Shown here one piece after another: positions 36,964 through 38,730 of a stretch of 50,822 bases of DNA. How positions within the stretch are numbered: position 1 is the first letter of the stretch; every line of letters starts with the position of its first letter. Under the pieces are notes generated by a model. It searched no databases. It saw only the letters and a list, made by a program, of their open reading frames with translations, and was not told the DNA's origin. Source of the stretch: a virus; the IMG/VR virus record IMGVR_UViG_3300020020_000044, positions 1-50,822 of that record. One strand, 5' to 3'. A program made the translations under genes and the position numbers.

Positions 36964-37536
36964 TCACAGCGTGCACGACTGCAAGTCGAACACGCCCAGG
37001 CGCATCTCTAGCCGCGCGATCGTCGCCTCGTCGGGGCAATGGCCCAGCGCCGTCTCGTGAACTTCCGATACGAATGGATCCATCATCGTACCTTCGAGGT
37101 GTCCCAGGCCTAGCAGGTGTCCGATCTCGTGCATAACGACCAGGCGCGCGAACGGCTCGTAGACGCCTCGGACGAGATGCACGACGCCCGGGATAGGACG
37201 GGAGCGATCGAGCCCGCCTAGACCGACCACGCACGCTGCTTGGCCATATCCACAGAACTCGCCCGGGTTGACCTCGGCGAACATGAGGTCGCAGCGATGA
37301 TCGGTGATGTCCGAGCCGATGTCGATCCACGCGCGCCAGCTCTGCGTAGCGTAGCGCCAGCCTGCGACGCCAGCTGATACGTCAGCGCGCGCCGGGTCGT
37401 CGACGTCTGTGCATACGCGTATCGGAGGCAGCACCGGTGCGGGCGCCGGTACGGCCGCTGGCATCTCGGGCGGAGTCGGTGGTGGTGCGGCGCAGAAGGT
37501 GAGAGCGAGTAGGAGCGGGGCGCATGCTCGGCGCAT
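36964..37536 (-). CDS. Secreted metzincin (matrixin-like) zinc metalloprotease 1
   Basis: A 190-residue protein with a signal peptide MRRACAPLLLALTFC (lipobox-like LTFC) and a proline-rich linker (residues 18-40). It carries the extended zinc motif HEIGHLLGLGH (residues 136-146) and the Met-turn MMDP (151-154), the hallmark of metzincins. Four other Cys (42, 82, 95, 102) may form disulfides. It would act in the periplasm or at the host surface. Its start lies 7 nt after a -10 (TAATGT). Confidence 0.82.
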   Translation of the reverse strand: MRRACAPLLLALTFCAAPPPTPPEMPAAVPAPAPVLPPIRVCTDVDDPARADVSAGVAGWRYATQSWRAWIDIGSDITDHRCDLMFAEVNPGEFCGYGQAACVVGLGGLDRSRPIPGVVHLVRGVYEPFARLVVMHEIGHLLGLGHLEGTMMDPFVSEVHETALGHCPDEATIARLEMRLGVFDLQSCTL

Positions 37537-37543
37537 ACGCCCT

Positions 37544-37573
37544 ACATTAGCACCGGGGCCCTACGTGGGCCAA
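37544..37573 (-). promoter_or_regulatory. Promoter with partial palindrome (copy 4)
   Basis: -35 TTGGCC (37573-37568), 18-bp spacer containing AGGGCCCCGGTG, -10 TAATGT (37549-37544), then 7 nt and ATG 37536. The palindrome is reduced to CCGGGGCCC (37553-37561), so control may be weaker. It lies inside the 3' end of the next gene upstream. Confidence 0.65.
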
Positions 37574-37743
37574 CGGTTGATGGCGTCGACGCATTGTGGG
37601 AATCGCTTGAGAGCGCTCGCGCGGAACGCCGCGCGGCTGGCGCGCTCGCGCTCGGCGCGCTCGATGCGGTAGTCGGCCTCGTCGGCCGCGCGCTCGGCCG
37701 CGAGGATTTCCGAGTAGGTAGCTTCCGTGTTCGCGTTGTTCAT
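37561..37743 (-). CDS. Small charged helical protein (60 aa), leaderless
   Basis: Start chosen at ATG 37743 (MNNANTEATYSEI), the position expected for the transcription start, 6 nt after the -10. ATG 37749 directly abuts the -10 and would precede the transcript. The protein is rich in Glu/Arg/Ala with an amphipathic helix (ERAADEADYRIERAERERAS). Function unknown. Confidence 0.55.
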   Translation of the reverse strand: MNNANTEATYSEILAAERAADEADYRIERAERERASRAAFRASALKRFPQCVDAINRWPT

Positions 37744-37749
37744 ACCCAT

Positions 37750-37778
37750 ACAGTACACGCGACCGGGGCCCCGGTCAA
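37750..37778 (-). promoter_or_regulatory. Promoter with GGGGCCCC palindrome (copy 5)
   Basis: -35 TTGACC (37778-37773), spacer GGGGCCCCGGTCGCGTG (17 bp), -10 TACTGT (37755-37750), then ATGGGT and ATG 37743. The palindrome CCGGGGCCCCGG is at 37763-37774. The -35 overlaps the stop of the upstream 60-aa gene. Confidence 0.8.
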
Positions 37779-37957
37779 GGCGTAGCCTCCGATTTGTGAG
37801 AGCGTATCCTACCCAGGTATCCGGCCAGCGCCCAGGCCCACATGCGGGGGCGCGACCAGACCGCGCCGAAGCTCCGACGCGCGTAGACCTCGCCCCCGCT
37901 GTGGCGCACGATCGTACCGTAGCCGATTCGGATGATAGGCTCGGGAGCGATCTTCAC
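37775..37957 (-). CDS. Small basic protein (60 aa)
   Basis: The start is GTG 37957, which overlaps the stop of the 37-codon ORF (GTGA). The product KIAPEPIIRIGYGTIVRHSG, then EVYARRSFGAVWSRPRMWAW has several aromatic and basic residues, but no domain is recognised. It is the last gene of the unit that starts with metalloprotease 2. Confidence 0.5.
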   Translation of the reverse strand: MKIAPEPIIRIGYGTIVRHSGGEVYARRSFGAVWSRPRMWAWALAGYLGRIRSHKSEATP

Positions 37958-38067
37958 GGTACGACCTGCGCCCGGTAGTAGCCCCAATGCGTTGCAGTGT
38001 GACACTTGCGCCAGGGGTTCCGGTCCGCCTCGTTCTGCTGCCAGGGTGCGCCCGGGATTTGTTGCAT
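37954..38067 (-). CDS. 37-codon ORF with SD, between protease 2 and 60-aa gene
   Basis: Product MQQIPGAPWQQNEADRNPW then RKCHTATHWGYYRAQVVP. ATG 38067 has GGGAG nine bases upstream, and the stop overlaps the next GTG (GTGA). Rich in Trp, Gln, His and Tyr, which is unlikely by chance in this genome's background. The same frame is open back to the protease stop (38122), with coding-like sequence (CDGLDRSEAWELTK) but no start there, so a longer ancestral gene or readthrough is possible. Confidence 0.5.
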   Translation of the reverse strand: MQQIPGAPWQQNEADRNPWRKCHTATHWGYYRAQVVP

Positions 38068-38121
38068 CTTCGTCAGCTCCCACGCTTCGCTACGATCGAG
38101 CCCGTCGCACTTCGCCCTTTG

Positions 38122-38730
38122 TCACGGGACACCGTCGAAGTTTCGGCAGACCGACCACACGTCGTGCGTGGTGAGCTCGGGCACGCGCGGGTCGGCGAGT
38201 GGATACATGACATCCGCGCGGTCGGTCGAATGGTCGGCACCGAGCGCGTGGCCGATCTCGTGCATGAGGGCGCCCACGGCGCGCGCGTCCCACAGTTCCG
38301 CCATCTTCTGATTGACTGTGATCGTTCCGGCTTTCTCGGTGGCGAGCGCTTCCGGGATGCCGACCCGCCCCCAGCGCACGTTGATGTCTGCCTCGCCCTC
38401 GACCAGCGTGAGCGATACGTTCGGACACTGTGCTTCGAGCTTGGTGTTCCAAGCGTCGACCGCCGCGACTACGGCCGGAGTTAGATCGCCATCGCGCACG
38501 ACGATCGTGTGGTGGCCCGTATTGCACGCGCACGCGAGGAGCGCCAAGGCGAGTAGCGCTATGGTGCGCGCCTCCTTCGCTCGACCGAGAACCCACAATG
38601 CAAGGCGCAAGCGACGCGCAGCAGAGCGCGCGATCCACGCCGGAGTGCCCGGGTTCCGCTCGGCGTACGCGCGAGCGCTTTCATAGTAAGCTTGTATCCC
38701 TTGGAGTCGTTTTGCCGTCGCGTGCTTCAT
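38122..38730 (-). CDS. Secreted metzincin (matrixin-like) zinc metalloprotease 2
   Basis: A 202-residue protein. A basic 50-residue N-terminus (MKHATAKRLQGIQAYYES...) precedes a membrane/signal segment with lipobox LLAC (residues 57-69). The protease domain has WNTKLEAQCPNVSLTLVEGEADINVRWG, then HEIGHALGADH (157-167) and the Met-turn VMYP (174-177). It would be tethered to the membrane facing the periplasm. It is distantly similar in plan to protease 1 but not a recent copy. ATG lies 6 nt after the -10. Confidence 0.82.
   Translation of the reverse strand: MKHATAKRLQGIQAYYESARAYAERNPGTPAWIARSAARRLRLALWVLGRAKEARTIALLALALLACACNTGHHTIVVRDGDLTPAVVAAVDAWNTKLEAQCPNVSLTLVEGEADINVRWGRVGIPEALATEKAGTITVNQKMAELWDARAVGALMHEIGHALGADHSTDRADVMYPLADPRVPELTTHDVWSVCRNFDGVP

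What the first reader, a model, noticed from the sequence alone, without database searches (positions are those of the whole stretch)
36964..38730. Two predicted secreted metzincin proteases encoded by one phage
Genes at 36964-37536 and 38122-38730 both have the extended zinc motif HExxHxxGxxH and a Met-turn, plus N-terminal signal/lipobox-like segments. Metzincins are common in bacteria and eukaryotes but rare as phage gene products, and I know of no described phage with two. Each has its own leaderless promoter of the common family, so they are probably expressed early in infection or as host-modifying accessory genes. Possible roles are cleavage of host surface proteins, superinfection exclusion or attack on competing cells.
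Basis: partly seen in the sequence, partly recalled or inferred. Interest (0 to 1): 0.8.

Follow-up and report, generated by a model that had tools for sequence, protein, structure and literature searches.

The report
Two exported metalloprotease genes in phage
A bacterial virus carries two dissimilar small genes for zinc proteases that are probably exported to the cell envelope; the genes look real, but such proteases turn out to be fairly common in viral DNA collections and one phage-derived example has already been shown to help phages burst cells.

Summary
In detail: 36964-37536 (P0001, 190 aa) and 38122-38730 (P0002, 202 aa), both minus strand, carry HEIGHxxGxxH plus a Met-turn, against 0.001 motifs expected in a shuffled proteome. 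Pfam matrixin: P0002 passes (34.0 bits, cut-off 24), P0001 just misses (23.6). Both AlphaFold models match matrixin catalytic domains best. Export is likely, but neither lipobox is standard. The two proteins align only over the zinc motif, so this is no recent duplication.

The rarity claim fails. Of such frames, 62 of 101 have Sec/TM-like N-termini, against 59 of 583 control frames. One contractile phage record (L124), matching 19 of 62 predicted window proteins, also carries two metzincins; but only 1 of 78 other portal-found relatives has one, so the genes are accessory. A phage-derived Listeria metzincin is published (PMC8235301).

Best guess: exported accessory proteases that weaken the host envelope for lysis (about 0.4). 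Activity, timing and target are untested. New member of a known kind.

The parts
36964..37536 (-). P0001, 190 aa, matrixin-like metzincin with N-terminal Sec-like signal
   Evidence: PF00413 23.6 bits, cut-off 24; listed chains are matrixins; karilysin Z 8.6, rmsd 3.6, 128 aligned
37099..37131 (-). P0001 zinc motif HEIGHLLGLGH (residues 136-146)
37075..37089 (-). P0001 Met-turn TMMDP (residues 150-154)
37486..37536 (-). P0001 N-terminal signal-like segment MRRACAPLLLALTFCAA; LTFC is a poor lipobox
   Evidence: lipobox rule recalled
37544..37573 (-). diverged promoter-like sequence upstream of P0001: TTGGCC-N18-TAATGT, 7 nt before ATG
38122..38730 (-). P0002, 202 aa, matrixin-like metzincin with N-terminal extension and one hydrophobic segment
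   Evidence: PF00413 34.0 bits over cut-off 24; karilysin Z 9.5, rmsd 2.9, 105 aligned
38230..38262 (-). P0002 zinc motif HEIGHALGADH (residues 157-167)
38200..38211 (-). P0002 Met-turn VMYP (residues 174-177)
38524..38574 (-). P0002 hydrophobic segment ending in LLACAC, residues about 53-69; possible lipobox if an internal TTG start (38598) is used
38737..38765 (-). leaderless promoter of P0002: TTGACCGGGGCCCCGG ... TACGGT, 6 nt before ATG

Best explanation
Both genes encode small zinc endopeptidases of the metzincin clan, matrixin-like, that are exported from the infected cell's cytoplasm and act in its envelope. They are accessory genes of a contractile-tailed phage, probably acquired separately. 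Most likely they cut envelope proteins late in infection so that the phage's own lysis enzymes work better and virions are released, by analogy with the phage-derived Mtz protease of Listeria. Shown here: frames, motifs, fold class by profile and model, phage context, patchy distribution. Inferred: protease activity, export, late action and the lysis role.
For: Zinc motif and Met-turn far beyond chance. Pfam M10 met for P0002, 0.4 bits short for P0001. The listed VIA-align rows for both models are matrixins or snapalysin. Phage hallmarks in the same contig: TerL, portal, head protease, major head protein, sheath, tape measure, baseplate. Viral metzincin frames are strongly enriched for exported N-termini: Sec/TM-like 62 of 101 versus 59 of 583 controls, lipoprotein-like 18 of 101 versus 8 of 583. 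PMC8235301 (abstract, sections 4.1, 4.4 and Discussion read): a secreted metzincin of phage origin, whose prophage copies often lie downstream of holin-lysin, together with its partner increased phage-mediated lysis and raised released virions about 5-fold; the lysis effect needed the active protease. In the window both genes are on the same strand as, and 3.4 kb or more upstream of, a weak endolysin candidate at 33051-33554.
Against: The endolysin candidate is only a sub-threshold CHAP match (E 0.062) with no PHROG, NCBIfam or PDB hit. No lipoprotein partner like Tim sits next to either gene. The P0002 promoter belongs to a small set in the accessory stretch, so late timing is unproven. No conserved lysis neighbourhood was shown for viral metzincins. 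The pair in the related phage L124 sits between terminase and portal. Foldseek gave no hit at E 0.001 or better for either model, and the models are of middling confidence (pLDDT 70 and 75). Zinc-site geometry was not measured.
Confidence: 0.42

Rival explanations
1. Superinfection exclusion: the anchored proteases shave the phage's own receptor or another surface protein from the infected or lysogenic cell and so block a second phage.
For: Envelope location fits; own promoter for P0002 shared with several small accessory genes; a glycosyltransferase-like neighbour that could also alter the surface (phrog_13126, class moron and host takeover).
Against: No defence-model match (PADLOC); the paper search for phage, lipoprotein, superinfection exclusion and metalloprotease listed 3 papers, whose titles and abstract starts showed none on a phage metalloprotease. 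No integrase or repressor was identified here, but not every gene was annotated.
Confidence: 0.2
2. Host-benefit cargo: host-type secreted proteases picked up by the phage that feed or protect the host (nutrient release, competition), with no role in the lytic cycle.
For: Patchy occurrence: besides L124, 1 of 78 portal-found relatives carries one, so the genes are not core; P0002's best NCBIfam neighbour is a myxobacterial metalloprotease family, far below cut-off (22.8 of 250 bits).
Against: No close bacterial homologue in the one genome scan: 1 of 28 candidate stretches, 27% identity, in a Methanohalobium MAG. GC3 of both genes (0.75 for P0001 from the later start, 0.77 for P0002) matches the phage's other genes (0.78 +/- 0.03, n = 49), which argues against a very recent transfer from a host of different composition.
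Confidence: 0.22
3. Cytoplasmic or inactive proteins: the N-termini are not real signals (start-site error) and the proteins act on an intracellular target or not at all.
For: An alternative start at 37464 would remove P0001's signal; neither lipobox meets the consensus at the annotated start.
Against: Both annotated starts follow promoter-like boxes at leaderless distance; exported N-termini are common among viral metzincins and rare in control frames.
Confidence: 0.12

Closest known systems
Mtz of the mtz-tim locus, Listeria monocytogenes metzincin of phage origin (PMC8235301)
   Same: Small secreted metzincin with HExxHxxGxxH/D and Met-turn, in phage-derived DNA, accessory gene (paper sections read).
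   Different: Gram-positive host; paired with a TIMP-like lipoprotein, prophage copies often downstream of holin-lysin; here two proteases and no such partner found. No sequence comparison with Mtz was made.
Matrixins (Pfam PF00413; MEROPS M10A recalled), e.g. karilysin of Tannerella forsythia
   Same: Catalytic-domain fold by profile and model; zinc motif and Met-turn.
   Different: No room for a propeptide or further domains; signal or membrane segment instead; P0001 misses the Pfam cut-off by 0.4 bits.
Snapalysin of Streptomyces (MEROPS M7 recalled)
   Same: Very small metzincin; second-ranked structural match of P0002 (4hx3 Z 8.8, rmsd 3.2, 108 aligned).
   Different: Snapalysin's third zinc ligand is Asp (recalled); here it is His.
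Two metzincins of phage contig L124 (IMGVR_UViG_3300049456_000119)
   Same: Contractile-phage relative (19 of 62 window proteins match), 64% GC, two small metzincins, at least one with a lipoprotein signal.
   Different: Different gene position (between TerL and portal); the pairs compared align with P0001 and P0002 only weakly or over the motif.
Rctr197k_191 of Virus Rctr197k (KX853510), annotated hypothetical
   Same: HELGHAWGLDH and IMYP with an N-terminal hydrophobic segment in a GenBank Caudoviricetes record.
   Different: 197 kb record; only weak similarity to P0002 (tblastn E 0.02).

Membership tests
Metzincin clan | HExxHxxGxxH/D zinc motif | tested here: met
   both proteins
Metzincin clan | Met-turn downstream of the third ligand | tested here: met
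   sequence TMMDP and VMYP; the Met column is nearly invariant in the alignments
Metzincin clan | Met-turn lying under a three-His zinc site in the fold | tested here: inconclusive
   models align to matrixin catalytic domains, but coordinates of the site were not available to measure
Matrixin (Pfam PF00413) | score over the curated cut-off of 24 bits | tested here: inconclusive
   P0002 34.0 bits, met; P0001 23.6 bits, not met
Matrixin (Pfam PF00413) | matrixin catalytic-domain topology | tested here: met
   karilysin Z 8.6, rmsd 3.6, 128 aligned (P0001) and Z 9.5, rmsd 2.9, 105 aligned (P0002); middling Z values on middling models
Bacterial lipoprotein | lipobox with A/G/S before Cys, Cys at about residue 15-35 (rule recalled) | tested here: not met
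   P0001 LTFC; P0002 first Cys of LLACAC at residue 67 from the annotated ATG; met for P0002 only from an internal TTG
Mtz-Tim pair | adjacent TIMP-like lipoprotein gene | tested here: inconclusive
   no signal-bearing partner next to either gene; a TIMP-like fold was not searched for
Active zinc endopeptidase | proteolysis | not testable with these tools
   needs purified protein

The most novel reading that the evidence does not exclude
Exported matrixin-type proteases are a recurrent, largely unnoticed class of phage envelope-weakening or release factors, picked up independently and often in multiples by unrelated phages; in the broad contractile-phage lineage of this window two members each hold a pair.
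Probability: 0.25. Interest if true: 0.65.

Novelty: new member of a known kind. Interest (0 to 1): 0.36.

Why it matters
The pair itself is a new example of something with a published precedent. What would matter is the wider pattern: exported metzincins recur in viral DNA (one search stopped at its cap), hardly any match a PHROG family (two families, 7 matches among 123 proteins), and one tested case sensitises cells to lysis (PMC8235301). If they are a general release or envelope-attack module, phage lysis has a proteolytic arm that annotation misses.

Tried and rejected
Uniqueness of the finding: rejected. Tandem duplication within the window: rejected, the two proteins align only over a 13-residue stretch with the motif. 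Close relatives of either protein: none in viral contigs, in 50,697 phage records at E 0.01 or in 72,556 plasmids at E 0.001. Host inference: not reached; the one genome scan gave a single distant hit. 'Acinetobacter phage MD-2021a', with two genes named Matrixin, was rejected as evidence: the genes lie between grpE-dnaK and purK, so the contig looks chromosomal. A core role in the lineage: rejected; besides L124 only 1 of 78 records (L191) found by portal similarity has a metzincin (L075, also listed, was already known from the motif scan and was left out of the count; many of the 78 are short fragments). Five further TerL-similar records had no M10 match (0 of 5). TerL similarity of about 25-30% is not special to metzincin carriers: 4 of 52 control loci had it too. 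A second portal scan with the window protein alone found no relative. Profile searches of the PDB with alignments A1 and A2 gave very low E-values, but those profiles are dominated by other viral matrixins and say little about P0001 and P0002 themselves. A Terminase_6N search matched only 3 of 9 multi-metzincin records; it misses other terminase families, including the confirmed one in L124, so it decides nothing. Association of viral metzincins with lysis genes was not tested. Rows dropped: L101 (a 32-aa frame) left out of alignment A3 and; a further 20 of 122 sites were left out because the frame ran off the start of the locus.

Literature: searches. In those listings only PMC8235301 describes a phage metzincin; PMC4508852 (passages) reports metagenomic orphan metalloproteases, M10 among them; PMC5704599 (passages) was irrelevant. 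Subscription papers are not covered.

Full report
What is there. The window is the whole of one virus record, 50,822 bases, GC 0.646, with no tRNA and no Rfam hit. PHROG matches show a contractile-tailed phage: portal, TerL (phrog_38), head protease, major head protein, tail sheath, tape measure, baseplate wedge, and a primase/helicase. The two reported genes lie on the minus strand between the primase/helicase (40332-42740) and the terminase-structural block.

Are they metzincins? P0001 (36964-37536, 190 aa) has HEIGHLLGLGH and TMMDP; P0002 (38122-38730, 202 aa) has HEIGHALGADH and VMYP. The motif occurs only at these two places in six frames; the shuffled proteome gives 0.001. Pfam Peptidase_M10: P0002 34.0 bits, over the cut-off of 24; P0001 23.6, just under. 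AlphaFold models built with viral homologues: P0001 pLDDT 70.1, pTM 0.62; P0002 pLDDT 75.4, pTM 0.52. Foldseek's best hits are metzincins for both, mostly matrixins, but none reaches E 0.001 (2.9e-3 and 1.1e-3). VIA-align's 50 listed rows are matrixins for P0001 and matrixins plus snapalysin for P0002, best karilysin at Z 8.6 (rmsd 3.6, 128 aligned) and Z 9.5 (rmsd 2.9, 105 aligned). I take the identity as metzincin, matrixin-like, at about 0.85 to 0.9; the zinc-site geometry was not measured.

Export. P0001 starts MRRACAPLLLALTFCAA, a Sec-like signal with a poor lipobox. P0002 has a hydrophobic segment at about residues 53-69 ending in LLACAC after a long N-terminal stretch; an internal TTG at 38598 would turn it into a standard lipoprotein signal. 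The annotated ATG of P0002 sits 6 nt after the -10 box of an exact TTGACCGGGGCCCCGG promoter element, which favours the long form; P0001's upstream box is a diverged relative. So 'each has its own leaderless promoter of the common family' is right for P0002 and only loosely so for P0001. Four exact copies of the element, all on the minus strand, lie between 34.4 and 38.8 kb, that is, only in the accessory stretch (with up to three mismatches 15 matches against 0.77 expected).

Relation to each other. They align only over a 13-residue stretch with the motif: two acquisitions or very old divergence, not a fresh duplication.

How unusual? Neither has a close relative in phage records, plasmids or viral contigs. 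But as a class they are not rare. 108 of 122 have a Met within 45 residues of the third His. Of 121 viral frames plus the two window proteins, 74 of 123 match Pfam M10 at E 0.001. Searched as whole records, 107 of 120 match M10 at E 0.001 and 46 of 120 over the cut-off (36+34+37 and 19+11+16). Eight of 120 have matches in two or more separate frames (records of L076, L095, L098, L099, L111, L124, L141, L174), L098 in six (472 kb record). These records were chosen for the motif, so the fractions describe metzincin carriers, not viruses at large, and IMG/VR contigs can include host DNA. Phage genes were confirmed for L076 (connector), L124 (TerL and portal) and L075 (TerL and portal similar to the window's). 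A GenBank phage, Virus Rctr197k, also carries one, annotated hypothetical.

A relative with a pair. L124 comes from a 47 kb phage record, GC 0.64 in the held stretch. 19 of 62 predicted window proteins match it by tblastn at E 0.001; TerL 31% over 463, portal 34% over 334. It has two metzincins between TerL and portal. The downstream one aligns with P0001 and P0002 only at the motif; the upstream one gave only weak local matches to either. A scan seeded with the portals of L124, the window and L075 kept 80 loci; leaving out L124 itself and L075, both already known from the motif scan, 1 of 78 records (L191) has a metzincin, by motif in the held DNA and by M10 in the whole record. That protein starts MKTILPAIFSMLTLGC, a clear lipoprotein signal, and its motif region looks like that of L124's upstream gene. 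So the trait is accessory and patchy even here.

General property. Among viral metzincin frames with a complete 5' end, 62 of 101 have a Sec/TM-like N-terminus and 18 of 101 a lipoprotein signal, against 59 and 8 of 583 other frames of 130-400 aa in the same loci (simple rules, recalled). Viral metzincins are thus mostly exported proteins.

Mechanism. The published case (PMC8235301; abstract and three sections read) is a secreted metzincin that, with a TIMP-like lipoprotein, made Listeria more sensitive to phage lysis and raised virion release about 5-fold; lysis depended on its active site. By that analogy, by the export signals, and by the shared strand with a weak CHAP-like endolysin candidate downstream, I favour envelope weakening for lysis at about 0.4. 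Superinfection exclusion and host-benefit cargo remain live. Nothing here shows activity, timing or target.

Verdict. Real, ordinary in kind, previously exemplified; the most interesting residue is the breadth of exported metzincins in viral DNA and their repeated occurrence in multiples.

Noticed in passing
34438, 36953, 37778, 38765 (minus strand); degenerate at 34044: Four exact copies of TTGACCGGGGCCCCGG with a -10-like box close to a start codon, confined to the accessory stretch; the CCGGGGCCCCGG core is palindromic and lies between the -35 and -10 boxes, like an operator.
   Followed up: partly
35211-36266 and 34468-35214 (minus strand): A glycosyltransferase-like protein with sub-threshold TPR matches (phrog_13126, moron/host takeover) and an unclassified neighbour, possibly host-surface modifying.
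   Followed up: partly
26697-27113 (minus strand): Protein with HEAAHAVVG near its N-terminus, weak Peptidase_M50B match (18.6 of 26 bits), next to the head morphogenesis gene.
   Followed up: no
record of L098 (IMGVR_UViG_3300050821_013430, 472,749 bases): Six separate short frames (192-263 aa) matching Peptidase_M10 in one viral record.
   Followed up: no
L076 2246-4676: Two tandem secreted metzincins with similar N-termini, beside a peptidase-like gene (phrog_16701) and a small lipoprotein-like gene, in a phage contig.
   Followed up: partly
L079 104-5987 (minus strand): Three long frames (385-564 aa) with HEIxHxxGxxH that do not reach Pfam M10 at E 0.001.
   Followed up: no
L267 (CAKLQF020000029.1): Record labelled Acinetobacter phage MD-2021a carries grpE, dnaK and purK and two Matrixin genes; probably a mislabelled chromosomal contig.
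   Followed up: partly
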